Source of the DNA: Planotetraspora mira
GTDB taxonomy: Bacteria > Actinomycetota > Actinomycetes > Streptosporangiales > Streptosporangiaceae
Direction of reading: 5' to 3'
Length of the DNA: 50,938 nt
NCBI RefSeq assembly: GCF_016863275.1
Contig: NZ_BOOO01000045.1
Span: 1 to 50,938 of the forward strand
Shown: positions 26,120 through 50,938 of the stretch, in pieces
Layout of the letters: every line of letters begins with the position of its first letter
Position numbering within the stretch: the stretch's first letter is position 1
Notes under the pieces: generated by a model
What the model was told of the DNA's origin: nothing
The model's input: the letters and a program-made list of their open reading frames with translations, nothing else
The model's database searches: none
Translations under genes and position numbers: made by a program

Positions 26120-26343
26120 CTGGATCATGCACAAGTTCGCGCCCACGCTATCGGACCAGCCCACCCCTTGTGCGTGATCATGCTCAAGTTCGGCAGAAGG
26201 CCCCCTGACCTGCCCCAACACCGCGCGTGATCATGCACAGGTTCGGGTGGAGCCCTCGCGACCTGCCCGAACTCCAAGCGTGATCATGCACAGATTCGTG
26301 AAGTGCCCCCGCGATCTGCGAAGACATCGACCGTGATCATGCT
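26120..26343 (+). repeat. 53-bp-period intergenic repeat array A (five units, last partial)
   Basis: The core GATCATGC begins at 26123, 26176, 26229, 26282 and 26335, exactly 53 bp apart each time. The 20-bp motif is CGTGATCATGCACAGGTTCG with small changes; the fifth copy is degenerate after CGTGATCATGC. The 33-bp intervening segments differ but share ACCTGCCC at the same phase. The first unit directly adjoins the ribosome-binding site of the minus-strand membrane-protein gene. The stretch 26344-26568 holds no gene I can support. Confidence 0.93.
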
Positions 26344-26568
26344 GTGCCTGGTATCGACAGGGGTTTCCGCCTAGTGTCCTCTGCTTCGGAGCGATCCGGA
26401 GGAGTGCCGTTCTCTCTGGTCGGGGTCCGTTTCTAGGTTCGGAACCATGGAGGCCGGTAGGGCCTCATTAGGCCACTTCTGTGGGGATTGTGTGGGGAGT
26501 GCAGAGGGCGACATACGGCCGTTCCCGCCTGTAGCTTGGCAAGACGCGCGTTCCCTCAGAGGTGACCG

Positions 26569-26772
26569 ATGATCGCAGACGCACTGCTGACCCCGGAGCA
26601 GCTAGCCGAGTACCTGAAGGTGTCACCAGAGTGGGTCGACAAGAACATCTATGACCTGCCGTTCGTGAGGATTGGCAAGTCGTACCGGTTCCCGAAGGGG
26701 GACATTGACCAATGGCTGAGATGGTCTGAGTACTGCGGCCTGCCTCCGAAGTTTTTCGGCAAGCAGGTCTAG
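26569..26772 (+). CDS. excisionase-type helix-turn-helix protein
   Basis: 67 aa, ATG with GAGGTG 5 nt upstream. LLTPEQLAEYLKVSPEWVDKN, then LPFVRIGKSYRFPKGDIDQWL is the HTH_17/excisionase pattern: a MerR-like helix-turn-helix, a wing with G-K-x-Y-R-F and the D-I-D-x-W-L end. Such proteins serve as recombination directionality factors or small regulators in integrative elements. No integrase, replication or transfer gene is nearby, and base composition here is lower in GC than the flanks. It lies between the inverted arrays A and B. Confidence 0.82.
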   Translation: MIADALLTPEQLAEYLKVSPEWVDKNIYDLPFVRIGKSYRFPKGDIDQWLRWSEYCGLPPKFFGKQV

Positions 26773-26816
26773 GCAAGTACCTAGAACATCCATGCTCGGG
26801 CCGATCAGCCCAGGCT

Positions 26817-27032
26817 CTACTCCTTCTTGCGGTGCTTGGAGACTGCGCAGGCCACCGCGCCAAGCATTGCGATCATGGCGATCCGGAGGAGAACATCGCC
26901 CACGCGTTCGGTGCCAAGGTTGAGGGAGAAGAGGCCTCCAAGGATGAGTGTCCCCGTGCCAACGGCAAGGAAGACGTTACGTCCGGTTAGTCCGAAGAGC
27001 TCAAGCATGCGGGCGATGCTATGGCCCGCCAC
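26817..27032 (-). CDS. small membrane protein of unknown function
   Basis: 71 aa from GTG 27032, or 63 aa from ATG 27008. Two hydrophobic segments, about residues 19-37 and 46-62, are joined by NLGTERVGD, and the C-terminus is basic (SKHRKKE). No ribosome-binding site is obvious for either start. I recognise no family. It converges with the excisionase-type gene within the islet between arrays A and B. Confidence 0.45.
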   Translation of the reverse strand: MAGHSIARMLELFGLTGRNVFLAVGTGTLILGGLFSLNLGTERVGDVLLRIAMIAMLGAVACAVSKHRKKE

Positions 27033-27549
27033 TCAGTCCGCACCAGGATGATCGCTTAGGCGATCGCGCTCACTCGGGCGGCTCAGGCGTTCCACGATTG
27101 GCACCCTCACGACCCGCCCGCCATGCGCAACCAGGTGCTCCGCCGCGGGTTAATGCGACGGTGATCGCGTGCATACCCTGACCCCCATGCCGGGTGGTGG
27201 CCAGTGTGCTTACTGAAAAGTAGACGGACATCTGGCCGGAGATCGCCGCGCCTGCCCAGAGCCAAGCTTTAGAGCTTTTCATTGATCGTTCTCACTTCTA
27301 ATCGTCAGTGATCACTCGGGGGCTGATCCACGATCGGCAACGGGTGGAGCACCCCGCTGGATGAACGACATGGACCGCTGTCCATGGTCTGCTTGGCTTG
27401 TCCCAGGGCGATGGCGAGCGGGGTGATCAGGCCCTTACCTCAGCCATCTACGGCCGGCGACGACGAGCGGGCCCTTGACGATCACCTCGGAGCCGGAGCG
27501 CCCCTGCTGGGGGCAATTTCTGCATTCGTGTTGGCGGTAGCTTTTGCTC
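27033..27549. other. gene-free stretch inside the islet
   Basis: About 500 bp of lower-GC DNA. On the minus strand around 27310-27440 a short open stretch reads GLITPLAIALGQAKQTMD before a stop, with no start or family that I recognise, and may be a gene remnant. No tRNA or inverted terminal repeat was found here. Confidence 0.4.
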
Positions 27550-28017
27550 GTGCAGACGACATATCACCCCCGTTGGCCTCTGGTTCTCCTATCGAGCCTG
27601 GCTTTCCCCGTGCTTTTCGGAGTTGTCTTCGCAGCCGTGTCGCGTTCGGTCTTCGGCGCGGTGGTCGGAGCGCTTCTCGCCTTCGTGCTGGTGACTTTTA
27701 GAGTGAGACGTCGATCTCTGACGGTTCACGAGGATGGGATGACTGCACAACGGGATGCTTACAGGGTCTCCGTCAAATGGGCCGATCTGGTCGAGGTGCG
27801 GCGGGACAAGCTCGGGGGTCTGGTTCCCCTCGATGTGATGGTCTTCAGCCGCAGCGAGCTCGAACCGGTCGATGCGCGCGGCAAGGTGCGGCGTTCTGTC
27901 CCGCCGAAGGTCACAGAAGTCGGCGCTGATCGGCGAATCCAGGTCGGGGTCTACCTGCGCGACTGGCGTGAAAGCCCGATCGGACGGGCGGTTGCGGCTA
28001 CGGGCTTCCAAGCTTGA
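27550..28017 (+). CDS. membrane protein with PH-like cytoplasmic domain
   Basis: 155 aa from GTG 27550; a TTG at 27544 is possible. Two hydrophobic segments (PLVLLSSLAFPVLFGVVFAA and VFGAVVGALLAFVLVTF) form a hairpin, followed by a domain LTVHEDGMTAQRDAYRVSVKWADLVEV that resembles the start of bacterial PH-like domains. The rest (LGGLVPLDVMVFSRSEL, QVGVYLRDWRESPIG) fits the same type. No partner is recognised. The codon use is less GC-rich than that of surrounding housekeeping genes, consistent with acquired DNA. Confidence 0.65.
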   Translation: MQTTYHPRWPLVLLSSLAFPVLFGVVFAAVSRSVFGAVVGALLAFVLVTFRVRRRSLTVHEDGMTAQRDAYRVSVKWADLVEVRRDKLGGLVPLDVMVFSRSELEPVDARGKVRRSVPPKVTEVGADRRIQVGVYLRDWRESPIGRAVAATGFQA

Positions 28018-28047
28018 GTGACGTTCGCTCGCGCGGCCCGAGCGCCT

Positions 28048-28075
28048 GGCGGCCGGGACCGGCCCTCAGGCCGCC
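28048..28075. terminator. GC-rich hairpin after the PH-like gene
   Basis: Arms GGCGGCC and GGCCGCC, with nested pairing GGGACC/GGCCC inside the loop, lie 31 bp after the stop codon. Confidence 0.35.
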
Positions 28076-28116
28076 TGCCCGGCCGGCGAGCAGGCTAGGG
28101 TCGCGAGGCCTTCGCC

Positions 28117-28348
28117 CGAACCCGTGCATGATCACGAATGATGTTGGGCCTGGTCAGGCGGCCACTTTACGAATCTGTGCATGATCACGCTTGGAGTTCG
28201 GGCAGGTCGCGAGGCATCCGCCCGAACCTGTGCATGATCACGCCCGGTGTCGGGGCAGGTCAGGGCACCTTCTTACGAACTTGTGCATGATCACGCCCGG
28301 TGTCGGGGCAGGTCAGGGCACCTTCTTACGAACTTGTGCATGATCACG
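28117..28348 (-). repeat. 53-bp-period intergenic repeat array B (five units, inverted relative to A)
   Basis: Minus-orientation copies of the 20-bp motif begin at 28117, 28170, 28223, 28276 and 28329, all exactly 53 bp apart. The units beginning at 28276 and 28329 are preceded by identical spacers. Read on the minus strand, unit order and spacers match array A: the spacer 28190-28222 agrees with that at 26246-26278 in 30 of 33 positions, and 28243-28275 agrees with 26193-26225 in 27 of 33. Confidence 0.93.
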
Positions 28349-28362
28349 CCCGAGAGAGAGGG

Positions 28363-30030
28363 TCAGCGGATGGCTAGGCGGGTGGGGAGGCTTTCGTTGC
28401 CGAGGCGGTCGAGGGTGGTCACGTAGTACGTGCCGGCGACCTTGCCCGCATAGCTGGGAGCGTGCGTGGCCGGGACGACGGCGATGAGGTTCCGGCCGTC
28501 GGCTGTGGCGCACGTGCCTGCACTGTCGACCCGGTAGATCCCATAGGAGCGGGCGCCGGACTGGGCGGCCCATGCCAGCGTCCGGCCGTTGTGCTTCAGC
28601 CCGCTCGGGGCGGCGGGAGCCTTGGTGCTCATCCCCTTGATCAGGGGGAGGAGCGCGGGCCTGGTGTAGTACTCCTTCACGAGCCGGTCCATGACCGAGA
28701 GCGGGTTCGTTCGGAGCTGGGAGGCGTTGAAGAACACGTCGCCCTTGACCTCGGGGTACTTCTGGTTGACCGCCAGGTGCGAGGGCAGCTCATCGGGCTT
28801 GGCCCAGGCCGGGATCGTCTTGGTGCCCACCTGGTAGAGCGCCTGGCCGATGTAGAGGTCGACGCCGGTGCCCTTGACCGCGTTCGCCCACCAGGGGACC
28901 AGGACGTTGTAGTCGGCGATCGCGTATCCCCGCGGCCAGTAGATCTGGGGGATCAGGTAATCCACCGAACGCGCCTTGATCCACGCCTTCGCATCCGCAT
29001 AAATCGAGCTATATGCGGACATGCCCTTTGTATTCGAACCCGATGAAACTTCGGATTTGTTTCGCCAGATGCCGAACGGGCTGACGCCGAACTTCACGTA
29101 CGGCTTCTCCGTGTGAACGGCCTTTGAGACCTGGGCGATCAGCTTGTTGACATTGTCCCGCCGCCAGTCGGCCAGCTTCATGCCCTTGCCGTACGTCTTG
29201 AAGGCGGCCGAGTCGGCGAACTGCGTCCCCTGCCCCGGATAGGGATAGAAGTAGTCGTCGAAGTGGATGCCGTCCACGTCGTAGCGCCGGGTCACGTCCT
29301 TCACGACCTTGGTGACCCAGTCGCGGACCTGCGGGAGCCCGGGGTTGTAGTAGAGCTTGCCCTCGTGCTTCACGACCCAGTTGGGGTGAAGGCGGGCGGG
29401 GTGGTTCGCGGGCAGTTTCGACAGGTCCGTGGTGTCACCGGCGCGGTAGGGGTTGAACCACGCGTGGAACTCCATGCCGCGCTTGTGCGCCTCCTGGATG
29501 AGGAAGGGCAGCGGATCCCAGCCGGGGTTCTTGCCCGCCGTGCCGGTCAGGTACTGCGACCAGGGCTCGAGCGAGGAACTGTAAAGAGCGTCCGAGGCCG
29601 GCCGTACCTGCAGGAACACCGCGTTGAACCGGCGCTTGGCCGCGAGGTCGAGGAGTTTGACGTACTCGGCCCGCTGCTGGGCGGGCGTCAGGCCGGCGCG
29701 GGAGGGCCAGTCCAGGTTGTGCACCGTGGCGATCCAGATGCCGCGCAGTTGCCGTTTGGCGTAACGGGCGCTGGTCGTGCACGACGCCGTGCTCGCGGGC
29801 TCGGCCATCGTCGCTCCAGATCCCGCCGCGGGGGAGCGGGGGGTCGCGGGGCGTGCCACGGCACGCGCGTCACCCGCCCGTGCCGACAGTTGCGTCCGCG
29901 CGGCGGCGGCGGCCTGCTCGACCTGCTCGGCCCGGGCACCCGGTCCGTAGGCGTACGCGACTCCCATGGCGGCGGCCGCGGCCAGGATGCCGGCGAGCAG
30001 CGGCCGGCTCACCCGTCTCCGCTCAGTCAC
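28363..30030 (-). CDS. secreted glycosyl-hydrolase-like family 10 protein (GHL10/DUF187)
   Basis: 555 aa from GTG 30030, which has GGGGAGG 8 nt upstream; an in-frame start at 30066 lacks one. Residues about 10-35 form the signal peptide. The GHL10 domain begins at KRQLRGIWIATVHNLDWPS (about residue 110) with the hallmarks FNAVFLQVRPASDALY, GMEFHAWFNPYRA, HPNWVV, YDVDGIHFDDYFYPYP and KFGVSPFGIWRN, then VDYLIPQIYWPRGY. A C-terminal fibronectin-like domain (about 465-555) ends the protein. The family is thought to cleave bacterial or environmental polysaccharide outside the cell. It converges on array B. Confidence 0.9.
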   Translation of the reverse strand: MTERRRVSRPLLAGILAAAAAMGVAYAYGPGARAEQVEQAAAAARTQLSARAGDARAVARPATPRSPAAGSGATMAEPASTASCTTSARYAKRQLRGIWIATVHNLDWPSRAGLTPAQQRAEYVKLLDLAAKRRFNAVFLQVRPASDALYSSSLEPWSQYLTGTAGKNPGWDPLPFLIQEAHKRGMEFHAWFNPYRAGDTTDLSKLPANHPARLHPNWVVKHEGKLYYNPGLPQVRDWVTKVVKDVTRRYDVDGIHFDDYFYPYPGQGTQFADSAAFKTYGKGMKLADWRRDNVNKLIAQVSKAVHTEKPYVKFGVSPFGIWRNKSEVSSGSNTKGMSAYSSIYADAKAWIKARSVDYLIPQIYWPRGYAIADYNVLVPWWANAVKGTGVDLYIGQALYQVGTKTIPAWAKPDELPSHLAVNQKYPEVKGDVFFNASQLRTNPLSVMDRLVKEYYTRPALLPLIKGMSTKAPAAPSGLKHNGRTLAWAAQSGARSYGIYRVDSAGTCATADGRNLIAVVPATHAPSYAGKVAGTYYVTTLDRLGNESLPTRLAIR

Positions 30031-30160
30031 GTGATGACCTCCCCGATTCCCGATGCATACCGCCATCAGTCTTGCACCGGCAAATCGATGGTTTCCCCGA
30101 AGAAAAGAAAGTCATCTCATGTTGCTGATGTGATAAAGCGAGACGCACGTCATGGAGTTC

Positions 30161-30196
30161 CCCGGGCGCCGGCCGTACGAAACTCCGGCGCCCGGG
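30161..30196 (-). terminator. terminator of the EF-G-like gene
   Basis: Perfect 12-bp arms CCCGGGCGCCGG and CCGGCGCCCGGG with a 12-nt loop lie 17 bp beyond the minus-strand stop at 30213. Confidence 0.7.
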
Positions 30197-30212
30197 AAAC
30201 ACCTGATGATCG

Positions 30213-32342
30213 CTAGGCGGAGTCCGAGGCGAGCTTGTCCGCGAGGTGCGAGGGGAGCGGCTCGTACCGCAGGAAGACGCGGTGGAACGTCCCCGTGCCG
30301 TGGGACATCGACCGCAGATCGATGGCGTACCGGGTGATCTCCAGTTCCGGCACCTCCGCCTTGACCAGCGTGCGCCCGGTGCCCACGGGTTCGGTGCCGA
30401 GGACCCTGCCGCGCCGCGAGGACAGGTCCGACATGACGGCCCCGACGAACTCGTCGGCCACCAGGATGGACACCTGGTCGACCGGCTCGAGCAGCAACGT
30501 CGGCACCTTCGCCGCGGCCTCCTTCAGCGCCAGTTGGCCCGCGATCTGGAAGGCCATGTCGGAGGAGTCGACCGAGTGCGCCTTGCCGTCGTAGAGGGTG
30601 ACGCGGATGTCGACCATCGGATATCCGGCGACGACCCCGCGCTCCATCTGCGCCCGCACTCCCTTCTCCACCGACGGGATGAACTGGCGTGGCACCACGC
30701 CGCCGACGATCTTGTCGACGAACTCCAGCCCGCCGCCCGACGGCAGCGGCTCGATCTCGAGATGGCAGACGGCGTACTGCCCGTGGCCCCCGGTCTGCTT
30801 GACGTTGCGCCCGGTGCCCTGGACCTTCCCGCCGAACGTCTCCCGCAGCGGCACCCGCAGCTCGACCTTCTCCACCTCCACGCCGTGCCGCTTGGACAGC
30901 CGGTCGAGGAGCACGTCGGCATGGGCCTCGCCCATGCACCAGAGCACGAGCTGGCGCGTTTCGGCGTTGTTCTCCAGCCGCAACGTCGGATCCTCGGCGA
31001 CGAGACGGGCGAGCGCCTGACTCAGCTTGTCCTCGTCGGCCTTCGACTTGGCCTGGATCGCGACGGGCAGCAGCGGATCGGGCATGTCCCACGCCCTCAT
31101 GAGCAGCGGGTTGTCCTTGTCCGACAGCGTGTCGCCGGTCTCCGCGCGCGTCAGCTTCGCGATCGCGCAGATGTCGCCGGCCACGCACTTGCCGAACGGC
31201 CGCTGGGTCTTGCCCAGGGGCGAGGACAGGCTGCCGACGCGTTCGTCCACGTCATGGTCCTCGTGTCCCCGGTCGGCCATCCCGTGCCCGGAGACGTGGA
31301 CGACCATGTCGGGGTGGAGGGTCCCGGAGAAGACCCGCACCAGACTGATCCGCCCGACGTACGGATCGCTCGTCGTCTTGACGACCTCGGCCACCAAAGG
31401 TCCGGACGGATCGGCGGTGATGTTGGTCACCGGCTTCCCGTCGGTCGTCGTGATCTCGGGAAGCGGGTGCTCGATCGGCGAGGGGAAACCCTGGGTGACG
31501 ATCTCCAGGATCTCCAGCATGCCGACGCCGGGCGCCGCGGCCAGGACCGGGTGGAAGGTGCCCCGCGCGACGGCCTTCTCCAGGTCGTCGATGAGGACCT
31601 TGGTTTCGATCTCCTCACCGGAGAGGTAACGGTCCATGAGGGACTCGTCCTCGCTCTCCTGGATGATCCCCTCGATCAGGTCGCCCCGGTACTGCTCGAT
31701 CAGCTCGAGCTGGCCGGAGTCCGGTTCCCGTTCCGTACGGCCGCCGGCCCCGTACTCGAAGAACCTCTGGGACAGCAGGCCGAGCAGCCCGATGCCGTCC
31801 ACGGGAAGATAGAGGGGGGCGACGCCGTCTCCGAAGGCCTCCTGGCAACTCGCGAGGACCTCGTCGAAGTTGGCGCGCGGATGGTCGATCTTCGTGATGA
31901 TCACCGCGCGGGGCATGCCGACCAGCCCGCACTCTTCCCAGAGCATCCGGGTCAGGCCGTCGACGCCCTCGGCGGCCGAGACGACGAACAGCGCCGCGTC
32001 GGCCGCGCGCAACCCCGCGCGCAGGTCGCCGACGAAGTCCGCGTAACCGGGGGTGTCGAGAAAATTGATCTTGATTCCGTTGTGCACGACAGGGGCGACG
32101 CAGAGGTTGACGGAGCGTTGCTGGCGAACCTCCACCTCGTCGAAGTCGCACACCGTGGTGCCGTCCTCGACCCTGCCCGTGCGCGGTACGGTGCCCGTCG
32201 CCACGAGCAACGCCTCGATCAGGGTGGTCTTGCCGGCTCCAGAATGGCCGACCAGCACGACATTGCGCACCATGTCCGGCCGATCGGCCGCGGGTGCTCT
32301 GCCCGCGGCTCCTGTTGTAGCGCCGGTAGATCTTTCGGCCAC
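30213..32342 (-). CDS. elongation factor G-like GTPase (EF-G2/FusA2 type)
   Basis: 709 aa, GTG with GGGAGG 4 nt upstream. The G domain has G1 GHSGAGKTT, G3 DTPGYADF and G4 TKID; the effector loop reads QQRSVNLCVAP and not the RGITI of true EF-G, a hallmark of the EF-G-like paralogues. Domains II-V follow to the end, including the domain IV/V stretch GGVVPRQFIPSVEKG and LEPVDQVSILVADEFVGAVMSDLSSRRGRVLG in outline. Paralogues of this type (such as mycobacterial FusA2) are GTPases that do not replace EF-G in elongation, and their job is not settled. It is divergent from pgsA. Confidence 0.92.
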   Translation of the reverse strand: MAERSTGATTGAAGRAPAADRPDMVRNVVLVGHSGAGKTTLIEALLVATGTVPRTGRVEDGTTVCDFDEVEVRQQRSVNLCVAPVVHNGIKINFLDTPGYADFVGDLRAGLRAADAALFVVSAAEGVDGLTRMLWEECGLVGMPRAVIITKIDHPRANFDEVLASCQEAFGDGVAPLYLPVDGIGLLGLLSQRFFEYGAGGRTEREPDSGQLELIEQYRGDLIEGIIQESEDESLMDRYLSGEEIETKVLIDDLEKAVARGTFHPVLAAAPGVGMLEILEIVTQGFPSPIEHPLPEITTTDGKPVTNITADPSGPLVAEVVKTTSDPYVGRISLVRVFSGTLHPDMVVHVSGHGMADRGHEDHDVDERVGSLSSPLGKTQRPFGKCVAGDICAIAKLTRAETGDTLSDKDNPLLMRAWDMPDPLLPVAIQAKSKADEDKLSQALARLVAEDPTLRLENNAETRQLVLWCMGEAHADVLLDRLSKRHGVEVEKVELRVPLRETFGGKVQGTGRNVKQTGGHGQYAVCHLEIEPLPSGGGLEFVDKIVGGVVPRQFIPSVEKGVRAQMERGVVAGYPMVDIRVTLYDGKAHSVDSSDMAFQIAGQLALKEAAAKVPTLLLEPVDQVSILVADEFVGAVMSDLSSRRGRVLGTEPVGTGRTLVKAEVPELEITRYAIDLRSMSHGTGTFHRVFLRYEPLPSHLADKLASDSA

Positions 32343-32594
32343 GTCGCCTCCCGCGTCTCAGAGCGGTCGGGATGGGCACGTCGCACGCTCCCCGCGCCGG
32401 CCGCTCGTGCCGTCGCTGTCCGCGCCCATGGCCCCGCCCTCGCGGAGCGCGCGTGGGAGTCAACGTGGCGTTTCACTGCACGTCACCTCCACGCGGCCTG
32501 TCAGGCGCGTGTTCTTCACCCTTTACCCATGTGGCGAGGATCACAAGACTTTTCGACGGAATGTCCTTGCGAGCTCGCCGTGCTGTTCATGGCC

Positions 32595-32600
32595 TACGAT
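32595..32600 (+). promoter_or_regulatory. -10 element of a near-leaderless pgsA promoter
   Basis: TACGAT lies 9 nt before the ATG at 32610 with no ribosome-binding site between. The surrounding sequence matches that before the aldo/keto reductase gene. Confidence 0.5.
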
Positions 32601-32609
32601 CGGACGGCC

Positions 32610-37084: not shown

Positions 37085-37996
37085 GTGTCCAGCAGCACCC
37101 CCGAAATCAACGAGTCCGCCGTCGGCACCGCCCGCGTGAAGCGTGGAATGGCGGAGATGCTCAAGGGCGGGGTCATCATGGATGTCGTCACCCCTGAGCA
37201 GGCCAAGATCGCCGAGGACGCCGGCGCGGTGGCGGTCATGGCTCTGGAGCGCGTGCCCGCCGACATCCGCGCCCAGGGCGGCGTGTCGCGGATGAGCGAC
37301 CCCGACATGATCGAGGGCATCATCGGCGCGGTGTCGATCCCGGTGATGGCCAAGGCGAGGATCGGCCACTTCGTCGAGGCTCAGGTGCTGCAGGCGCTCG
37401 GAGTCGACTACGTCGACGAGTCCGAGGTGCTGACGCCCGCCGACTACGCCAACCACATCGACAAGTGGCAGTTCACGGTGCCCTTCGTGTGTGGCGCGAC
37501 CAACCTTGGGGAGGCGCTGCGCCGCATCACCGAGGGCGCCGCGATGATCCGCTCCAAGGGTGAGGCGGGCACCGGCGACGTCTCCAACGCGACCACCCAC
37601 ATGCGGCAGATCCGCGGCGAGCTGAAGCGGCTGACCTCCCTGCCCGAGGACGAGCTCTACGTCGCGGCCAAGGAACTGCAGGCGCCGTACGAACTGGTCG
37701 CCGAGGTGGCCAAGGCCGGCAAGTTGCCGGTGGTGCTGTTCACGGCCGGCGGCATCGCGACACCGGCGGACGCGGCGATGATGATGCAGCTCGGCGCGGA
37801 GGGCGTGTTCGTCGGCTCCGGCATCTTCAAGTCGGGTGACCCGGCCAAGCGTGCGGCGGCGATCGTGAAGGCCACCACGTTCTTCGACGACCCCGATGTC
37901 ATCGCCAAGGTCTCGCGCGGCCTGGGCGAGGCCATGGTCGGCATCAACGTGGACGACGTCCCCGTCTCACACCGCCTGGCCGAACGCGGCTGGTAA
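37085..37996 (+). CDS. pdxS: pyridoxal 5'-phosphate synthase, PdxS subunit
   Basis: 303 aa, GTG with GTGAGG upstream. The barrel enzyme is almost invariant: [75 protein letters not shown] and GEAGTGDV are all present, with the catalytic Lys after [12 protein letters not shown] regions. It condenses ribose-5-P, glyceraldehyde-3-P and ammonia (from PdxT) to PLP. The partner pdxT lies 0.94 kb downstream, separated by array C and a marR gene. Confidence 0.97.
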
Positions 37997-38030
37997 CCCC
38001 ACCCACCCCGGCCTCGGGCTCAGACTCGGG

Positions 38031-38397
38031 CGTGATCATGCTCAGGTTCGTAGAAGGATGTGCTGAGCTGCGCCCTCTCGCGCCGTGATCATGCACACGT
38101 TCGGGGATGCACCGTCTGAGCTGGGCCTTTCTTGTTCGTGATCATGCGCAGGTTCGGGAATTGACGGTCTGAGCTGCTCGTTCGTTGTTCGTGATCATGC
38201 ACGTGTATTCGGGGATTCCGTGGATGTGCATGATCACGGATGGTGTTCAGGCATGTCGGAGGCATGATCACCGAACCTGCGCATGATCACGCGGAAGGTT
38301 CGCGCAGGTGGGACGGCCTGAATGCGAATCTGTGCATGATCACGCCCGGAGATGGGGCTGGTCGGACGGCACATCTCCGAACCCGTGCATGATCACG
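38031..38397. repeat. 53-bp-period intergenic repeat array C (four forward plus four inverted units)
   Basis: Forward copies have GATC at 38034, 38087, 38140 and 38193. Inverted copies of the 20-bp motif begin at 38219, 38272, 38325 and 38378. Both halves keep the exact 53-bp step; the symmetry centre is about 38214. The fourth forward copy has 2 extra bases. Forward spacers share CTGAGCTG. The array fills the gap between pdxS and the marR gene and lies just upstream of that gene's promoter. Confidence 0.93.
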
Positions 38398-38418
38398 CCG
38401 GAGGCGGGGGTGGGGGGT

Positions 38419-38424
38419 TAGGGT
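38419..38424 (+). promoter_or_regulatory. -10 element of a leaderless promoter (marR)
   Basis: TAGGGT ends 7 nt before the GTG at 38432, 22 bp after the last unit of array C. Confidence 0.5.
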
Positions 38425-38431
38425 CTGGGGT

Positions 38432-38857
38432 GTGACGACGGACGACACGGGACGGCTGGCGGGGAGTCTGTCGCGGGAGCTCCGCGACCTCGTCATGCTG
38501 CTTCGCCGTACGACCGCGGGACAGCCGGTGACCGCCCAGCAGTACTCCGTTCTCGGCTCCCTCGAAGGCGCCCCGCGCCGTATGTCCGAGTTGGCCGAAG
38601 AGCACGGCGTGCAGTTGCCCACCATGACCGTCCAGATCAACCGGCTCGAGGACGCGGGCCTGGTCGCCCGGGGCACGGACGCCTCCGACGCCCGCGTCCG
38701 CACGGTCGAGCTGACCAGCGAGGGCCGGTCCCGGCTCCATGCCGTACGGCAGGCGAGGATCTCCTACCTCACCCGGCAGTTGGACAGGCTCACCGCTGAA
38801 GAACGGCGCGCCATCAGTGCGGCCCTGCCCGCACTGGCCAAGCTCGGCCGCGGCTGA
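38432..38857 (+). CDS. MarR-family transcriptional regulator
   Basis: 141 aa, GTG start, apparently leaderless. The winged-helix fold is standard: [59 protein letters not shown] in outline, and wing [18 protein letters not shown]. The ligand and targets are unknown. It sits between pdxS with array C and pdxT, an unusual place, since pdxS and pdxT are normally close. Confidence 0.9.
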
Positions 38858-40354: not shown

Positions 40355-40362
40355 TGTCGTTT

Positions 40363-43052: not shown

Positions 43053-43086
43053 GGCCCACCATGCGGCACACGGACCGGGAGCGAGC

Positions 43087-44443: not shown

Positions 44444-44803
44444 GTGGGTAGCAACCCGCTTGGGACGTTCCTGCCGCTGATCTTGCTGGTAGTGGTCTTC
44501 TACTTCCTCTTGATCCGTCCGCAGCGAAAGCGGCAGCAGGAGCAGGTACAGATGCAGAACAACCTGGCTCCCGGCGCCCGAGTCATGACGACGACCGGGC
44601 TGTTCGGCACCGTGTCGGCGATCGACGACGACGACGTCATCCTGGAGGTCGCCCCCGGAATCGAGACCCGGTGGGTCAAGGCGGCGATCGGCCGTGTGGT
44701 CACGCCCGCGGAGGGAACCTCTGATGAGGAGGCCGACTCGACCGTCGTCGACACCCCCGACACGACGACGGACGGCGATGACTCGAGTAGCAAGCAGTCC
44801 TGA
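44444..44803 (+). CDS. yajC: Sec translocase auxiliary subunit YajC
   Basis: 119 aa from GTG 44444, with AAGGAAGG 8 nt upstream. One membrane helix (FLPLILLVVVFYFLLI) is followed by RPQRKRQQE and the conserved GARVMTTTGLFGTVSAIDDDDVILEVAPGI, then an acidic/Thr-rich tail. YajC binds SecDF in the cytoplasmic membrane; both genes follow. Confidence 0.94.
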   Translation: MGSNPLGTFLPLILLVVVFYFLLIRPQRKRQQEQVQMQNNLAPGARVMTTTGLFGTVSAIDDDDVILEVAPGIETRWVKAAIGRVVTPAEGTSDEEADSTVVDTPDTTTDGDDSSSKQS

Positions 44804-44845
44804 GTAGGCTGATCGCACACCCTTTGACGAAAGAACTGACCACCA

Positions 44846-46603
44846 GTGGCCCCACCGACCAGTAGCCAGATCAAGCCGGGACGCACGCTCCTGGTACTTC
44901 TGGCGATCATTCTCGCCATGGGCGCGACGATCGCCCTACAGAAGGCGTTCGTCCCCAAATTCGGCCTCGACCTGGCCGGTGGGACCACGGTGACGCTTTC
45001 GCCGGCCACACTCGACGGGAAACCGCCGTCGGACGAGAGCCTCGACCGTGCCGTCACCATCATCCGGGCGCGTGTCAACGGCAACGGCATCACGGACGCC
45101 GAGGTCGCCAAGGCGAACTCCAACATCGTGATCTCGCTCCCCGGAGTGGGGCAGCGTGAGGCGGTGGCGCGAGTCGCCACCACCGCCGAGCTGCGGATGC
45201 GCCAGGTGCTCGCGGTGGCCGCCGCGACGAACCAGCCGGTTCAGATGCCGACGGCGGCTCCGACACCCAGCGGCTCGGGCGCTCCGAGCGCCACGCCGAC
45301 CGGCGGATCGACGCCCACTCCCAGCGTGAGCGGGACGCCTGCGGGCAGGGCACTGTCCTCGGCCCTCGCCGCGCCCTCGCCGTCCGCAACCGCGGACGCC
45401 AAGGGCGGAGCGAAGAGCGACGACAAGGCGAAGGGCGACGCGAAGGGGAAGGCCGAAGCCACCCCGACGCCGCCCGTTCCCCCTCCGGGGGCCACCGAGG
45501 ACCCGCTCGCCGGCGCGGACACCAGCGGCATCGACCCTGCGTTGCTGGACAAGTTCCGCGACATCGACTGCACCGCCAAGGACCGCGGTCAGGGCACCGC
45601 GGACGATCCGAACAAGCAGATCGTGGCATGCAGCCAGGACGGCACGGCGCGGTACATCCTCGACAAGGCGGCCGTGCAGGGCACCGAGATCAGCGGAGCC
45701 TCCGCCGGCACCGACCCGACGACGGGTGAGTGGATCGTCCAGGTCACCTTCAAGTCCAAGGGCGCGACGGAGTTCGCCGACATCACCCGGCGGATCACCA
45801 CGCTCACGGCGCCGCGCAACCAGCTGGCGAACGTGCTCGACGGCGTCGTCGTCGTGGCCCCGACGATCGAAGAGGCGATCCCCGGCGGAAGTGCCCGGAT
45901 CTCCGGCAACTTCACCCAGCTGACCGCCAACGATCTCGCGGACCAGCTCAAGTACGGCGCGCTGCCGCTGAAGTTCAAGCAGAGCGAGGTCGTGTCGGTC
46001 TCCTCGACGCTCGGCCAGGACCAGCTCCGTGGCGGCCTCATCTCGGGCGCCATCGGCCTGCTGATCGTCATTCTCTACTTGTTGCTCTACTACCGGGGCC
46101 TCGGCCTGATCGGTGTGGCGAGCCTCGGCGTGGCCACGGTGATCACCTACTCCACGGTGGTGCTGCTGAGCCATAACGCGGGCTTCCGGCTCTCGCTGCC
46201 CCACATCATCGGCCTCGTGGTCTCGATCGGCATCACGGCGGACTCGTTCATCGTCTACTTCGAACGCATCCGTGACGAGATCAAGGAGGGCCACCGCACG
46301 TTGCGCTCGGCCGTCGAGGTCGCCTGGCGCCGCGCGAGACGGACGATCCTCGTGGCCGACGCGGTCATGTTCATCGCCGCGATCGTGCTGTACTTCCTCG
46401 CGGTCGGCGGCGTGGCGGGCTTCGCGTTCGCGATGGGCCTGACCACACTGATCGACATCGTGGTCGTCTTCCTCTTCACCAAGCCGCTCATGTCGCTGGT
46501 GGCGCGGATGAGGTTCTTCGCCAAGGGCCACAAGCTGTCCGGACTCGACGCGGAGCGCATGGGCCGTACGAGCCCCGCCGAGCAGACCCTGCAGGAGGCG
46601 TGA
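44846..46603 (+). CDS. secD: protein translocase subunit SecD
   Basis: 585 aa, GTG start. First helix LLVLLAIILAMGATIALQ, then FGLDLAGGTTVTL (the D-x-x-GG motif of SecD), a periplasmic-type P1 domain, and five C-terminal helices with LGVATVITYSTVVLL, GLVVSIGITADSFIVYFERIRDEI and the VFLFTKPL end. The P1 region carries a Ser/Pro/Thr/Ala- and Lys-rich insertion (about residues 130-225), common in actinobacteria. SecD and SecF use the proton gradient to help pull proteins out of SecYEG. The secF start overlaps its stop. Confidence 0.95.
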   Translation: MAPPTSSQIKPGRTLLVLLAIILAMGATIALQKAFVPKFGLDLAGGTTVTLSPATLDGKPPSDESLDRAVTIIRARVNGNGITDAEVAKANSNIVISLPGVGQREAVARVATTAELRMRQVLAVAAATNQPVQMPTAAPTPSGSGAPSATPTGGSTPTPSVSGTPAGRALSSALAAPSPSATADAKGGAKSDDKAKGDAKGKAEATPTPPVPPPGATEDPLAGADTSGIDPALLDKFRDIDCTAKDRGQGTADDPNKQIVACSQDGTARYILDKAAVQGTEISGASAGTDPTTGEWIVQVTFKSKGATEFADITRRITTLTAPRNQLANVLDGVVVVAPTIEEAIPGGSARISGNFTQLTANDLADQLKYGALPLKFKQSEVVSVSSTLGQDQLRGGLISGAIGLLIVILYLLLYYRGLGLIGVASLGVATVITYSTVVLLSHNAGFRLSLPHIIGLVVSIGITADSFIVYFERIRDEIKEGHRTLRSAVEVAWRRARRTILVADAVMFIAAIVLYFLAVGGVAGFAFAMGLTTLIDIVVVFLFTKPLMSLVARMRFFAKGHKLSGLDAERMGRTSPAEQTLQEA

Positions 46604-47694
46604 TGCCGGGTGTTATCAGTCGCCTCTACCGCGGCGACATCAACATCGACTTCGTCGGCAAGCGCAAGATCTGGTACGGCCTGTCGGCCTTCCTGCTGAT
46701 CATCTCGATACTCGGCCTCGTCCTTCACGGACTGAACCTCGGTGTCGAGTTCAGGGGCGGCTCGGTCTTCGACTTCGCCCGGACGCCCGGGTCGAGCGTG
46801 GAGCAGGTCCGGTCGACCGTCGAGGGCGCGGGCCCGCACCAGGTGATCGTCCAGCAGGCGGGCTCGAAGAACTGGCGGGTCACCACGGAGAGCCTGGACG
46901 TCGATGGGGTGTCCAAGGTCCAGAAGGCGGTCGCCGAGGAGTACAAGATTCCCGAGGCGCAGGTCAGCTCTCAGGTGATCGGGGCCACGTGGGGCGGTGA
47001 GGTCTCACAGAAGGCCTGGCTCGGCCTCGTGGTCTTCATGCTCGCGATCATGCTGTACCTCTCGGTGGCCTTCGAGTGGCGGATGGCGCTCGCCGCCGTC
47101 GTCGCCCTCGTGCACGACCTCGTGATCACGGCGGGCATCTACGCGTGGTCCGGCTTCGAGGTCACTCCGGCGACCATGCTGGGCTTCCTGACGATCCTCG
47201 GCTACTCGCTGTACGACGCGGTCGTGGTCTTCGACATGATCAAGGAGGTGACGGGCAAGCTCGGGACGTCGGCCAAGATGACCTACACCCAGGCGGCGAA
47301 CAACGCCCTCAGTCACACCCTGATCCGGTCGCTGAACACCTCGCTCGTCGCGATCCTGCCTGTGGCGGCGATCCTGTTCATCGGGACCACGCTGCTCGGC
47401 GCAGGCACGCTGAAGGACCTGTCGCTGGCCCTGTTCGTCGGAATGCTCGTCGGCACCTACTCCTCGCTGTGCGTCGCCACGCCGATCCTGGTGACGCTCA
47501 AGGAGCGGGAGCCGCAGTGGCAGGCGCTGGCCAGGCGGGTCGCGGCCCGGCAGGTCTCCGCCGCCAAGGCCGCCGCGGCGACCGCGGGCGGGAGCCGTAC
47601 CGGCAAGGAGCCCGTCGCGGCGGGTTCCCAGAACGGCGCCGCGGGATCCCAGAACGGCACCGTGCCCGGTGGGAAGCAGCGCAAGAAGCGTTAG
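46603..47694 (+). CDS. secF: protein translocase subunit SecF
   Basis: 363 aa from ATG 46603, overlapping the secD stop (TGATG) with AGGAGG 4 nt upstream. FVGKRKIWYGLSAFLLIISI is the first helix, followed by GLNLGVEFRGGSVFDF, LVVFMLAIMLYLSVAFEWRMALAAVVALVHDL in outline, and GFLTILGYSLYDAVVVFDMIKE. The tail is Ala/Gly/Gln-rich and basic. Partner of SecD in the membrane. A terminator follows. Confidence 0.95.
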   Translation: MPGVISRLYRGDINIDFVGKRKIWYGLSAFLLIISILGLVLHGLNLGVEFRGGSVFDFARTPGSSVEQVRSTVEGAGPHQVIVQQAGSKNWRVTTESLDVDGVSKVQKAVAEEYKIPEAQVSSQVIGATWGGEVSQKAWLGLVVFMLAIMLYLSVAFEWRMALAAVVALVHDLVITAGIYAWSGFEVTPATMLGFLTILGYSLYDAVVVFDMIKEVTGKLGTSAKMTYTQAANNALSHTLIRSLNTSLVAILPVAAILFIGTTLLGAGTLKDLSLALFVGMLVGTYSSLCVATPILVTLKEREPQWQALARRVAARQVSAAKAAAATAGGSRTGKEPVAAGSQNGAAGSQNGTVPGGKQRKKR

Positions 47695-47718
47695 CCGTCC
47701 GGACACTCGGACACTCGA

Positions 47719-47762
47719 GCGCCCCCGCCGCCCGCAACGGGCAGCGGGGGCGCCGCTGTTTT
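47719..47762 (+). terminator. secDF operon terminator
   Basis: Sixteen-bp arms (47719-47734 and 47738-47753) with one mismatch and a CAA loop are followed by CGCTGTTTT, a short T-run. It lies 24 bp after the secF stop. Confidence 0.85.
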
Positions 47763-47867
47763 CGGGCGGCGTCCGCAGCGGTCCTTGGTTGAGGGGGCGG
47801 TGGGTCTGCCGGGTTTGACCGAGCAGCAGGCGGCCTGCCGTACGGGGAGGGCCCGCCGGATGTGCTC

Positions 47868-47873
47868 TAGGGT
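47868..47873 (+). promoter_or_regulatory. -10 element of a leaderless promoter (apt)
   Basis: TAGGGT ends 7 nt before the GTG at 47881; this supports that start over the ATG at 47860. Confidence 0.5.
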
Positions 47874-47880
47874 GGGCGTC

Positions 47881-48387
47881 GTGACTGACTGGAGCGCCCT
47901 GATTAGGGACATTCCTGACTACCCGAAGCCGGGGATCCTGTTCAAGGACATCACCCCGCTCCTGGCCGACCACGCGGCGTTCACGCAGGTCGTGGATGAG
48001 CTGGCCGACGGCCTCGTCTTCGACAAGGTGGTCGGCATCGAGGCGCGGGGGTTCATTCTGGCCGCGCCGGTGGCGTACCGGAGCGGCGCCGGGTTCGTCC
48101 CTGTCCGGAAGGCGGGCAAACTGCCGGCTGCGACGCTTGAGGCCTCCTACGACCTCGAGTACGGCTCGGCGACCATCGAGGTGCACGCGGACGCCTTCGC
48201 GCCCGGCGAGCGGGTTTTGATCGTCGACGACGTGCTGGCCACGGGCGGGACGGCCGAGGCGACCGTGGAACTGGTCAGGAGGGCGGGCGCGGAGGTGACC
48301 GCCGTGTCGTTCCTGATGGAGCTGTCGTTCCTGTCCGGACGGGACCGGCTGCCCGGTCTGGAGGTCCGCGCGCTGCTGAGCGTGTGA
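47881..48387 (+). CDS. apt: adenine phosphoribosyltransferase
   Basis: 168 aa from GTG 47881. Family markers: LIRDIPDYPKPGILFKDITPLL, VVGIEARGFILAAPVA, GFVPVRKAGKLPA and the PRPP-binding VLIVDDVLATGGTAEA. It converts adenine and PRPP to AMP in the cytoplasm. Position between secF and relA is the conserved one in actinobacteria. Confidence 0.95.
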   Translation: MTDWSALIRDIPDYPKPGILFKDITPLLADHAAFTQVVDELADGLVFDKVVGIEARGFILAAPVAYRSGAGFVPVRKAGKLPAATLEASYDLEYGSATIEVHADAFAPGERVLIVDDVLATGGTAEATVELVRRAGAEVTAVSFLMELSFLSGRDRLPGLEVRALLSV

Positions 48388-48453
48388 GCCCGATCGCGGG
48401 GCCGCCCGATCATGGGCGCGAACAGTCGGCGGAGAGTGCTGTGGCGGCACGGA

Positions 48454-48459
48454 TACACT
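48454..48459 (+). promoter_or_regulatory. candidate -10 of relA
   Basis: TACACT 31 bp before the relA start, followed by the AGGAG site at 48481. No clear -35. Confidence 0.35.
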
Positions 48460-48490
48460 GAGGGATCTGGACTCGACGTGAGGAGTCTGT

Positions 48491-50854
48491 GTGCCCCGTG
48501 ATGTGGTCGTGCCTGACAGCACGCGGGCTGGACGCGGGACCGACCCGCGCGAGGCCCCCGAGCCGGCCGATGTGCCCGCTGACGCGGTGCCCGACGCATC
48601 GGGGGGCGCGGAAGAGAGACCGGCGCCGGCCGCGCGACGACGGCTGACCCGGTTCGGGGGGCAATGGGGTGCTATGAATCCGGTGCTGGAGCCGCTGTTC
48701 AAGACGGTCCGGGCGACCCATCCCAAGTCCGACATGCGCCTGATCGAGCGCGCCTACGACATGGCCGCCTACCATCACCGCGACCAGAAGCGGAAGAGCG
48801 GCGACCCGTACATCACCCATCCGCTGGCCGTGGCGAGCATCCTGGCCGAGCTGGGGACCGACGACGAGACCCTGTGCGCCGCCCTGCTGCATGACACCGT
48901 CGAGGACACCGCCTACAGCCTCGACGAGTTACGGGGCGACTTCGGCGACAACATCGCCCTGCTCGTCGACGGCGTGACCAAGCTGGACAAGGTCAAGTTC
49001 GGCGACGCCGCGCAGGCCGAGACCGTCAGGAAGATGGTCGTCGCGATGTCCCGCGACATCCGGGTCCTGGTCATCAAGCTCGCCGACCGGCTCCACAACA
49101 TGCGCACGATGCGCTACATGCCCGAGCACAAGCGGCAGCAGAAGTCCCGGGAGACGCTCGAGATCTTCGCGCCCCTGGCCCACCGGCTCGGCATGAACAC
49201 CATCAAGTGGGAGCTGGAGGACCTCGCGTTCGCCATGCTCTATCCGAAGCGGTACGACGAGATCGCCCGGATGGTGTCGGAGCGGGCGCCCAGACGTGAC
49301 CTGTTCCTGCAGGAGGTCATCGAGAAGGTCTCCGCCGAGCTGCGCGAGGCCAAGATCAAGGCCACGGTGCGCGGGCGGCCGAAGCACTACTACTCGATCT
49401 ACCAGAAGATGATCGCCAAGGACGTGGCCTTCGACGACATCTACGACCTGGTGGGCATCAGGGTGCTCGTCGACACGGTCCGCGACTGTTACGCGGCGCT
49501 CGGGACGATCCACGCACAGTGGAGGCCGGTACCCGGGCGGTTCAAGGACTACATCGCCATGCCCAAGTTCAACATGTACCAGTCGCTGCACACGACGGTC
49601 ATGGGACCCGAGGGCAAGACGATCGAACTGCAGATCCGCACGCGGGCGATGCACAACCGCGCGGAGTACGGCGTGGCCGCCCACTGGAAGTACAAGGAGG
49701 AGACGAACGGCTCGGGGCCTGCCAAGGCCAAGCAGGTCAACGACATGGCCTGGTTGCGGCAGTTGCTCGACTGGCAGAAGGAGACCTCCGACCCGGGCGA
49801 GTTCCTGGAGTCGCTGCGTTTCGACCTGTCGGTGTCCGAGGTGTTCGTCTTCACGCCGCGGGGGCAGGTGATCGCCCTTCCCGAGGGTGCGACGCCCGTG
49901 GACTTCGCGTACGCCGTGCACACGGAGGTGGGACACCGCTGCATCGGCGCCCGCGTGAACGGGCGACTGGTGCCGCTGGAGTCCCGGCTCGGCAACGGGG
50001 ACACGGTCGAAATCTTCACCTCGAAGTCGCCGGACGCCGGACCGTCGCGTGACTGGCTGAAGTTCGTCAAGAGCGGCCGAGCCCGGAACAAGATCCGTCA
50101 GTGGTTCTCCAAGGAGCGCAGGGAGACCGCGATCGAGGCCGGCAAGGAGGCCATCGGGCGGGCGATGCGCAAGCAGGGCCTCCCGCTCCAGCGCCTCATG
50201 TCCGGCGAAGCGCTTCTGGCACTGGCGCGCGACCTGCGCTATCCGGACGTGTCCGCGCTGTACGCGGCGGTGGGGGAGGGCCATGTCGCGGCCCAGTCCG
50301 TCGTTCAGAAGCTCGTACAGGCGCTGGGAGGGGTCGACGGGGCTGAGGAGGACCTGGCGGAGGCCGCGGTCCCTACGAGGCTCAAGGGGCGCTCCAGGGC
50401 CAATTCGAACGCCGGCGTCATGGTGGCGGGCGATCCGGACGTGTGGGTGCGGCTGTCCCGATGTTGTATGCCGGTACCCGGCGACGACATCGTCGGATTT
50501 GTCACGCGAGGTCACGGAGTTTCCGTACATCGGACGAGTTGTCCGAACGTAGAGCAGTTGAGTGCGCAGGCGGACCGCCTGGTTCAGGTGTCATGGTCGC
50601 CGCAGGACGATTCGCTCTTCCTGGTAGCGATCCAGGTCGAGGCCCTGGACAGGCCTCGCCTGTTGTCCGACGTCACGCGGACGTTGTCGGACCACCACGT
50701 GAACATCCTGTCGGCATCGGTGGCGACCTCACGGGATCGGGTGGCCGTCAGCAAGTTCACCTTCGAGATGGGTGATCCCAAGCATCTCGGCCACGTCCTC
50801 AAGGCCGTCAGGACCATCCAGGGCGTCTATGACGTTTACCGCGTCACCAACTAA
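48491..50854 (+). CDS. relA: bifunctional (p)ppGpp synthetase/hydrolase
   Basis: 787 aa, GTG with AGGAG 5 nt upstream. After a variable acidic N-terminus of about 55 residues the RelA/SpoT order is complete: HD hydrolase domain ([20 protein letters not shown] in outline, LLHDTVEDT), synthetase domain ([41 protein letters not shown]), TGS domain ([22 protein letters not shown] in outline), a helical region, zinc-finger-type [25 protein letters not shown] in outline with CC and C residues, and a C-terminal ACT domain. With an intact HD motif it should both make and degrade the alarmone, as usual for the single actinobacterial Rel. A repeat unit lies 32 bp after its stop. Confidence 0.96.
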
Positions 50855-50886
50855 CCCAGATCCGGCCCCTTTCTTTCCCCCTTGGG

Positions 50887-50938
50887 CGTGATCATGCACA
50901 AGTTCGGAAGAAGGTGCAGTGGCCTGCCTGGACTCAAG
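50887..50938 (+). repeat. start of a further 53-bp-type repeat unit (D), cut by the window end
   Basis: One copy of the 20-bp motif (50887-50906) is followed by a segment like those of array A and B, beginning GAAGAAGGTGC. Whether more units follow cannot be seen. Confidence 0.8.

What the first reader, a model, noticed from the sequence alone, without database searches (positions are those of the whole stretch)
26120..50938. Unnamed family of intergenic arrays: 20-bp motif with an exact 53-bp period
Four sites (26.1, 28.1, 38.0-38.4 and 50.9 kb) carry about 19 copies of CGTGATCATGCACAGGTTCG. Within every same-orientation run the step is exactly 53 bp, with 33-bp segments that vary but share a second motif, about YGACCTGCCC, at constant phase. 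All copies are outside genes. 53 bp is five turns of B-DNA, so copies would face the same side of the helix, suggesting a dedicated binding protein or chromosome-organising role (inference). The conserved second motif argues against unrelated spacers.
Basis: partly seen in the sequence, partly recalled or inferred. Interest (0 to 1): 0.78.

Follow-up and report, generated by a model that had tools for sequence, protein, structure and literature searches.

The report
Phased two-armed intergenic repeat arrays
Soil bacteria of one actinobacterial family carry, between their genes, mirrored rows of a short DNA word set almost always exactly 53 letters apart, which look like ordered docking rows for an unknown protein; different lineages have their own version of the word but keep the same ruler.

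Summary
The motif occurs 313 times in the host genome; the genus is Planotetraspora. In 21 sampled stretches, 144 of 152 steps between neighbouring same-strand cores are exactly 53 bp. Copies form mirrored elements: an arm of about 2-6 units, a centre (13 bp between facing cores is the commonest gap), and an inverted arm. They lie between genes; in three named species they favour convergent pairs and avoid divergent ones. The 26.1 and 28.1 kb sites are one element, split by about 1.8 kb. A second motif, YGACCTG, sits at constant phase. The same 53-bp plan recurs in three other genera with other first motifs; one Planotetraspora species has its own variant. Orthologous arrays gain and lose units; spacers diverge quickly while the core and, more weakly, YGACCTG are conserved. 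Whole elements are occasionally copied to new sites. No Rfam family matched in the window, RAYT-type Y1 transposases are missing from 7 of 12 array-bearing genomes tested, and my literature searches found no description. Most likely these are phased binding arrays for an unidentified DNA-binding protein, acting as BIME-like boundaries at gene ends. The protein is not identified; a transposon-end reading remains open.

The parts
26120..26343 (+). Left arm of element 1: four 20-bp copies at 26120, 26173, 26226, 26279 (53-bp steps) and a truncated core at 26332. Its outer end lies 10 bp from the start of the minus-strand gene 23962-26109
26344..28116 (.). Sequence that splits element 1 in this genome, not in the five others compared (approximate limits). 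It holds a 67-aa HTH_17 excisionase-like ORF (26569-26772) and a 157-aa ORF (27544-28017). The whole intergenic stretch is 206-742 bp in the five other genomes
28117..28348 (-). Right arm of element 1: five inverted copies, 53-bp steps; the two outermost units are identical. Lies 14 bp from the 3' end of the minus-strand gene 28363-30012
38031..38189 (+). Left arm of element 2: three copies (38031, 38084, 38137), starting 34 bp after the end of pdxS
38190..38238 (.). Centre of element 2: facing cores CGTGATCATGCA and TGCATGATCACG with 25 bp between them
38219..38397 (-). Right arm of element 2: inverted copies at 38219 (4 mismatches), 38272, 38325, 38378; ends 34 bp before the MarR gene (38432)
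50887..50938 (+). First copy of a third array, 32 bp after the end of the relA/spoT gene; cut by the end of the window

Best explanation
These are members of a family of intergenic elements found in several genera. Each is built from two mirrored rows of protein-binding units. A unit is a 12-bp core (CGTGATCATGCA in Planotetraspora) with a lineage-specific arm, followed by YGACCTG about 31 bp on. The next core follows about 22 bp later, 53 bp in all, so every contact would lie on one face of the helix (3 + 2 turns; inference). I infer that an unidentified sequence-specific protein fills an arm cooperatively and that the two arms face each other across a short centre. The resulting nucleoprotein block would sit at gene ends and act like a BIME-type boundary: stopping read-through or holding supercoiling between neighbouring transcription units. 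Shown by sequence: anatomy, spacing, lower divergence of core and second motif, bias to convergent and away from divergent gene pairs, local gain and loss of units, rare whole-element copying, lineage-specific motif. Inferred: the protein, cooperative binding, boundary function.
For: Spacing: 144 of 152 steps (13-75 bp) between neighbouring same-strand cores in 21 G000 stretches are exactly 53 (52: 2, 54: 0), and 326 of 353 in 80 loci of three named species, although spacers of units in one arm are nearly unrelated (mean identity 0.41, against 0.37 between elements; 149 units). Orthologous arrays, G000 against P. silvatica (7 elements) and P. kaengkrachanensis (8): core divergence 0.049 and 0.067; spacer 0.198 and 0.408; tail 0.167 and 0.434; second motif 0.135 and 0.221 (Fisher for the second motif 0.063 and 4e-10, for the core 7e-14 and 3e-52). 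A 13-bp gap is the commonest between facing cores (11 of 41 named, 3 of 17 G000), with unrelated centre sequences by eye. The same 53-bp plan and YGACCTG with other first motifs occur in g24, g30 and g51. In G004, 40 of 54 units with TTCG at columns 17-20 read GAAG before it, against 56 of 144 reading CAGG in G000; at one orthologous array unit spacers match (25 of 33; background of 1001 comparisons at most 24) while the arm differs. In three named species 29 of 72 array-bearing intergenic regions are convergent against 40 of 328 others (p 2e-7), 7 of 72 divergent against 102 of 328 (p 1e-4).
Against: No binding protein is identified and I found no experiment. In the G000 set the convergent and divergent biases are not significant (p 0.11, 0.25), and many arms lie beside a gene's 5' end: 16 of 45 in G000 and 37 of 119 in the named loci. 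Spacing is looser in G062 (24 of 37 at 53), and 30-bp steps occur in G001. The core test is biased because units were chosen by likeness in G000; the second motif, not used for choosing, is clear against one species only. Indels: 11 of 16 (G003) and 20 of 31 (G001) lie outside units, but of the 5 and 11 inside units only 1 and 3 are 53-54 bp long. At the two window loci no unit homology between G000 and G004 above background survives, so the in-place arm switch rests on one locus. G002 has far fewer arrays (180 against 676-778 loose-pattern matches) and at least one locus with none, so an individual array is dispensable.
Confidence: 0.5

Rival explanations
1. Non-autonomous mobile element: the arms are multi-site transposon ends (as in Tn7- or Mu-like elements, recalled) bound by a transposase encoded elsewhere; the 53-bp phasing serves transpososome assembly.
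For: Whole-element paralogues at other sites: the G001 gain is 74% identical over about 340 bp, centre included, to an array 14.5 kb away; P. silvatica pairs 75% over 415 bp and 74% over 391 bp. In these pairs the local match starts within 23 bp of an outer core of one partner or both, not in the flanks. Gains in single species: G001 8 cores where G000, G002 and G003 have none; G004 9 cores where the five others have none. A site without array in G002. Two inverted arms per element.
Against: No recurring gene lies between separated arms: 11 of 12 such intervals were displayed and hold ordinary host genes or a one-off insertion. No target-site duplication was seen by eye at the one array-free site studied. 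Core and second motif stay less diverged at orthologous copies. Unit number changes locally and arms occur alone. Y1 transposases are missing from 7 of 12 array-bearing genomes; other transposase types were not tested.
Confidence: 0.28
2. RNA-level element: the arrays are transcribed 3' ends that act as terminators (hairpin centre, C-rich lead-in) or as RNA-protein binding sites.
For: Bias to convergent pairs in the named species. C-rich stretch before many first units (by eye). At the pdxS locus G062 has no array but, by eye, a hairpin followed by T-rich sequence, and G001 has only a single palindrome plus a stray half. Perfect stems running inward at the centre are slightly longer than shuffled (mean 0.88 against 0.39 bp).
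Against: In tandem gene pairs one arm is antisense, yet both arms have the same anatomy. No covariation between arm and second motif in G000 units, MI at most 0.05 bits. No Rfam match in the window. No terminator-like site found at 37900-38520, the only stretch scanned. Exact 53-bp spacing has no obvious RNA meaning.
Confidence: 0.12
3. Neutral minisatellite: tandem duplication of a 53-bp unit with no function; spacing is inherited from duplication.
For: Unit duplicates exist: the units at 28276 and 28329 are identical; unit pairs with at least 0.8 spacer identity are 4 of 186 within an arm and 7 of 192 between arms of one element.
Against: Spacers are almost unrelated but 52/54-bp steps are rare (2 of 152 in G000), and core and second motif diverge less than the rest of the same unit. 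A neutral array would be expected to lose register.
Confidence: 0.05
4. REP/BIME family proper, mobilised by a RAYT (Y1 HUH) transposase.
For: High copy number, intergenic, inverted pairs, convergent and unidirectional bias, species-specific sequence, as described for REPs (abstracts of PMC3733652 and PMC2817692).
Against: No Y1_Tnp match in G000, G001, G002, G003, G062, G074 or G079; no GTAG or CGTC tag in the consensus; 53-bp units in one orientation per arm rather than 20-40 bp palindromes.
Confidence: 0.03
5. CRISPR-like array (20-bp repeat, 33-bp spacer).
For: Direct repeats separated by dissimilar segments of constant length.
Against: The segments share YGACCTG at fixed phase, arms are mirrored, short elements are scattered over many contigs, and orthologous segments align with substitutions. 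cas genes were not searched for.
Confidence: 0.01

Closest known systems
BIMEs / REP sequences
   Same: High copy number, intergenic, inverted pairs, mostly convergent or unidirectional gene pairs, lineage-specific sequence (compared with the abstracts of PMC3733652 and PMC2817692)
   Different: Unit is 53 bp with two separate motifs at constant phase, repeated in one orientation per arm; no GTAG/CGTC tag; no Y1 transposase match in 7 of 12 array-bearing genomes
Iterated partition or operator arrays such as sopC of the F plasmid, 43-bp direct repeats (recalled)
   Same: Tandem sites spaced by a near-integer number of helical turns, conserved site and variable remainder
   Different: Many short arrays over the chromosome, mirrored, between genes; no Par protein shown
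Multi-site transposon ends of Tn7- or Mu-like elements (recalled)
   Same: Several spaced binding sites in inverted orientation at both ends of a unit that can appear at new places
   Different: No cargo or transposase found between the arms, no target duplication seen, unit number variable
Mycobacterial interspersed repetitive units (MIRU), some about 53 bp (recalled)
   Same: Short intergenic tandem arrays of variable copy number in actinobacteria
   Different: As recalled, MIRUs are near-identical whole units; here most of the unit diverges while motifs and length hold

Membership tests
REP/BIME (RAYT type) | Short palindrome (20-40 bp) with an unpaired GTAG or CGTC tag | tested here: not met
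   Consensus CGTGATCATGCACAGGTTCG + YGACCTG has no such tag; definition from the abstract of PMC3733652
REP/BIME (RAYT type) | RAYT (Y1_Tnp) gene present in the genome | tested here: not met
   0 matches to PF01797 in G000 and in 7 of 12 array-bearing genomes; 5 of 12 do have one
REP/BIME (RAYT type) | Predominantly between convergent or unidirectional genes | tested here: met
   65 of 72 array-bearing intergenic regions in three named species are tandem or convergent, against 226 of 328 others; in G000 24 of 28 against 172 of 233, not significant
CRISPR array | Unrelated spacers | tested here: not met
   Constant-phase YGACCTG in the 33-bp segments
CRISPR array | cas genes and spacers matching mobile DNA | tested here: inconclusive
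   No phage or plasmid match to one array; cas genes not searched
Transposon / MITE | Target-site duplication at an empty/filled site pair | tested here: inconclusive
   One array-free site (L009 10839 against G002) shows no obvious duplication by eye; flanks are C-rich on one side, G-rich on the other
Transposon / MITE | Related whole copies at unrelated sites | tested here: met
   Whole-element paralogue pairs, e.g. 74% over 342 bp (G001) and 75% over 415 bp (P. silvatica), scoring 188 and 260 bits against a 99th percentile of 129 and 134 bits for pairs in those species
Protein-binding array (partition- or operator-like) | A protein binds each repeat | not testable with these tools
   No binding data; only conservation and spacing
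Structured RNA family | Match to a known family or covariation | tested here: not met
   No Rfam match in the window; no arm/second-motif covariation in 149 G000 units

The most novel reading that the evidence does not exclude
A previously undescribed class of bacterial chromosomal boundary: mirrored, helix-phased arrays between genes, each lineage using its own recognition word on a shared 53-bp ruler. The word can be rewritten across hundreds of sites when the unknown binding protein changes specificity.
Probability: 0.35. Interest if true: 0.88.

Novelty: new variant of a known kind. Interest (0 to 1): 0.73.

Why it matters
If the arrays are a protein scaffold, they offer a natural series for asking how a bacterium marks gene ends or loops its chromosome: same ruler, different words in related species, array-rich and array-poor relatives, and orthologous loci with 0 to 9 cores. 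The G004 difference is a candidate case of genome-wide rewriting of a binding site in place, seen so far at one orthologous locus. If they are instead transposon ends, they are an unusual cargo-free, multi-site kind. Either way a family with up to about 320 full motif copies per genome (4 to 319 in the five genomes of the genus) seems not to have been described in the papers I could search.

Tried and rejected
Rfam on the window, phage and plasmid records (one array queried) and viral contigs gave nothing related; the four viral stretches are unrelated repeats by eye. CRISPR, RAYT-REP and RNA-hairpin readings were tested and put low. A search for a gene carried between arms found only ordinary host genes or a one-off insertion in the intervals displayed (11 of the 12 pairs separated by 350-7000 bp; the L043 interval was not displayed). 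The idea that new arrays arise only locally was dropped when whole-element paralogues appeared. An in-place arm switch was looked for at three loci and seen at one. The wider-order search added only 4 genomes, all zero; no genome search went beyond the order. Literature: the searches (listings only, listing 20 of 28 and listing 8 of 12) gave no description of these arrays; of papers, only the abstracts and outlines of PMC3733652 and PMC2817692 were read.

Limits: gene positions come from a home-made codon-usage caller, not a curated annotation. The 20 G000 stretches were picked from the first 100 listed places. Loose-pattern counts include some matches read across copies on the opposite strand and are not numbers of units; the stricter pattern gives 683 in G004 and 401 in G062. 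Comments marked by eye come from reading printed sequence.
Full report
CHECK OF THE OBSERVATION. The 20-mer occurs 16 times in the window with up to 3 mismatches, at the stated places, against a mean of 0.01 (maximum 1) in 100 shuffles. Steps within runs are all 53 bp. In the whole genome (9.03 Mb, 100 contigs) the pattern CGTGATCATGCNCRNGTTCG occurs 313 times (149 forward, 164 reverse); the reversed control has 0. In the 21 G000 stretches examined (the window and 20 others), 144 of 152 steps of 13-75 bp between neighbouring same-strand cores are exactly 53, 2 are 52 and none 54.

ANATOMY. Copies form elements: a forward arm, a centre and an inverted arm. Of 91 neighbouring + then - arm pairs in the loci searched, 75 have an end-to-end distance between -50 and 150 bp, 2 overlap more, none lies between 150 and 400 bp, 13 lie between 400 bp and 20 kb and 1 falls outside the histogram. 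Some arms stand alone. A unit is CGTGATCATGCA + arm (CAGGTTCG) + variable stretch + YGACCTG(C/G) + variable tail. The commonest gap between facing cores is 13 bp (11 of 41 in the named loci, 3 of 17 in G000); among 58 distinct centres 11 have 13 bp and 5 have 66 = 13 + 53, with unrelated sequence by eye. Core centre to second motif is about 31 bp and on to the next core about 22 bp, close to 3 and 2 helical turns (inference).

PLACE IN THE GENOME. 2 of 161 copies in the G000 stretches and 6 of 383 in the named loci lie inside called genes. Arrays lie close to gene boundaries. The outer neighbour of an arm is a gene 3' end in 29 of 45 (G000) and 82 of 119 (named), a 5' end in the rest. For arms whose outer neighbour is a gene 3' end within 150 bp, the TGA of CGTGATCATG is itself the stop codon in 6 of 28 (G000) and 24 of 85 (named). 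In three named species 29 of 72 array-bearing intergenic regions are convergent against 40 of 328 without arrays (p 1.6e-7), and 7 of 72 are divergent against 102 of 328 (p 1.2e-4); the smaller G000 set (28 against 233 regions) has the same direction without significance (p 0.11 and 0.25). Flanking genes in the window include pdxS (SOR_SNZ), a MarR regulator, RelA/SpoT and a GHL10 glycosyl hydrolase-like protein.

THE 26.1 AND 28.1 KB SITES ARE ONE ELEMENT. In P. silvatica (G003) the same gene pair is separated by a continuous 669-bp stretch with both arms; the other four genomes compared also have arrays there, in stretches of 206-742 bp. In the window's genome the element is split by roughly 1.8 kb holding a 67-aa HTH_17 excisionase-like ORF and a 157-aa ORF with a DUF4131 hit below the curated cut-off.

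DISTRIBUTION. Of 341 family genomes, 32 have a match to an 18-base form of the motif, but it is abundant only in the genus (5 genomes: 347, 248, 86, 365 and 5 matches) and in one genome of another genus, G062 (278); the rest have 1 or 2. A looser core pattern with a 52-54 bp step gives 771, 676, 180, 765 and 778 in the five Planotetraspora genomes and 647 in G062; reversed controls are zero, but some of these matches are read across opposite-strand copies. A still looser first motif with exactly 53 bp, in 79 genomes from 65 genera, finds 5 genera: G004 683, G062 401, genus g30 (G079 152, G074 46, G070 45, G076 31, G080 3; three other g30 genomes 0), g51 (G211 41) and G090 with 2; G212 of g51 has 205. 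First motifs: CGTGATCATGCACAGGTTCG (four Planotetraspora genomes), CGTGATCATGCAGAAGTTCG (G004), CGTGATCATGCACAGGTTCC (G062), CGTGATCTTGTAGTTTGTCGCA (g30), CGTGATCTTGC.....CTCGCA (g51). YGACCTG at the same phase shows in the profiles of G000, G004, G062 and g30 and, by eye, in g51. Single palindromes TGATCATGC...GCATGATCA without such arrays occur in some other genera.

CONSTRAINT. In orthologous arrays, G000 against P. silvatica (7 elements) and P. kaengkrachanensis (8 elements), divergence is 0.049 and 0.067 in the core, 0.167 and 0.213 in the arm, 0.198 and 0.408 in the first spacer, 0.135 and 0.221 in the second motif, 0.167 and 0.434 in the tail. Core against spacer and tail: p 7e-14 and 3e-52; second motif against them: p 0.063 and 4e-10. 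Units were chosen by likeness to the motif in G000, which can bias the core comparison by up to about twofold (my estimate) but not the second motif. Of the indels in these alignments 11 of 16 and 20 of 31 lie outside units; of those inside, 1 of 5 and 3 of 11 are 53-54 bp long, so length change is not purely by whole units, at least as aligned.

DYNAMICS. The number of units at one locus varies. At pdxS-marR the cores count 8, 8, 7, 1, 2 and 0 in G000, G003, G004, G002, G001 and G062; G062 has no array there but, by eye, a hairpin followed by T-rich sequence. At L013 the intergenic region of G002 is 53 bp shorter, with one unit fewer, and at L009:10839 G002 has a 16-bp intergenic region with no array. 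Apparent gains in one species: G001 at window 11999-12228, G004 at 17355-17495, G062 at 19797 and 22533. Unit pairs with at least 80% spacer identity are 4 of 186 within an arm, 7 of 192 between arms of one element, and 1 of 10648 between elements; that one joins the two halves of the split element. Whole elements are nevertheless sometimes copied: the G001 gain is 74% identical over about 340 bp, centre included, to the array 14.5 kb away, and similar pairs exist in P. silvatica (75% over 415 bp, 74% over 391 bp).

A POSSIBLE SPECIFICITY SWITCH. Among units with TTCG at columns 17-20, 40 of 54 in G004 read GAAG before it; in G000 56 of 144 read CAGG, the rest being scattered. At one locus shared by both, a unit keeps 25 of 33 spacer letters (background of 1001 comparisons: mean 13.5, maximum 24) and another 24 of 33, equal to the background maximum, while the arm differs. 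At the two window loci no unit homology to G004 above background is left. So in-place rewriting is supported at one locus only.

WHAT IT IS NOT, AS FAR AS TESTED. No Rfam family in the window. No hairpin covariation between arm and second motif; the strongest dependencies are between neighbouring or nearly neighbouring bases. No Y1 transposase match in G000, G001, G002, G003, G062, G074 or G079, 7 of the 12 array-bearing genomes tested, while 13 of the 16 other genomes have one. No phage or plasmid match to the array queried. Intervals between separated arms hold ordinary genes or, in the window, an insertion.

HOW IT PROBABLY WORKS. The best fit is a row of sites for a sequence-specific protein that needs both motifs and a fixed helical register, with two rows facing each other between genes. 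That would make a boundary of the BIME kind (REPs and BIMEs are reported as protein-binding sites suggested to act in chromosome organisation and termination; abstract of PMC2817692). The rival with most support is that the arms are ends of a cargo-free mobile element. The two can be combined: a mobile repeat recruited as a boundary. The protein is the missing piece.

NOVELTY. The searches (listings) showed no paper on these arrays. The kind (abundant intergenic inverted repeats, mostly at gene 3' ends) is known; the two-motif 53-bp ruler with lineage-specific words is not a feature I know of any named family (recalled).

Noticed in passing
window 26344-28116: Sequence present only in this genome among the six compared; it carries a 67-aa HTH_17 excisionase-like ORF and a 157-aa ORF with a weak DUF4131 hit. 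Possibly a remnant of an integrated element.
   Followed up: partly
G001:C1:28554-28633: Three copies of the motif with 30-bp rather than 53-bp steps, followed by 53-bp steps.
   Followed up: no
G002 (P. phitsanulokensis), loci L041-L048: Few arrays: 180 loose-pattern matches against 676-778 in the other four Planotetraspora genomes, often a single facing pair or none at loci with full arrays in G000. A natural candidate for loss of the binding factor.
   Followed up: partly
L151, L152, L153, L154 (genera g5, g52, g40, g34): Palindromes TGATCATGC...GCATGATCA, or close variants, in genera without 53-bp arrays like these; they may be the simplest relatives of the element centre.
   Followed up: no
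window 8422-8671: Tandem repeats of 18 to 60 bp inside a called gene (7838-9010), probably a low-complexity protein stretch.
   Followed up: no
L029-L035 (G062): Spacing is looser than elsewhere: 24 of 37 steps at 53, 9 at 52, 3 at 54, so the ruler is less strict in that genome.
   Followed up: partly
L142, L147, L149 (g30) and L106 (P. silvatica): Arrays at the same gene pair in two genera but with different unit sequence, so the position may be older than the present motifs (L149 placed by its match to L142).
   Followed up: partly
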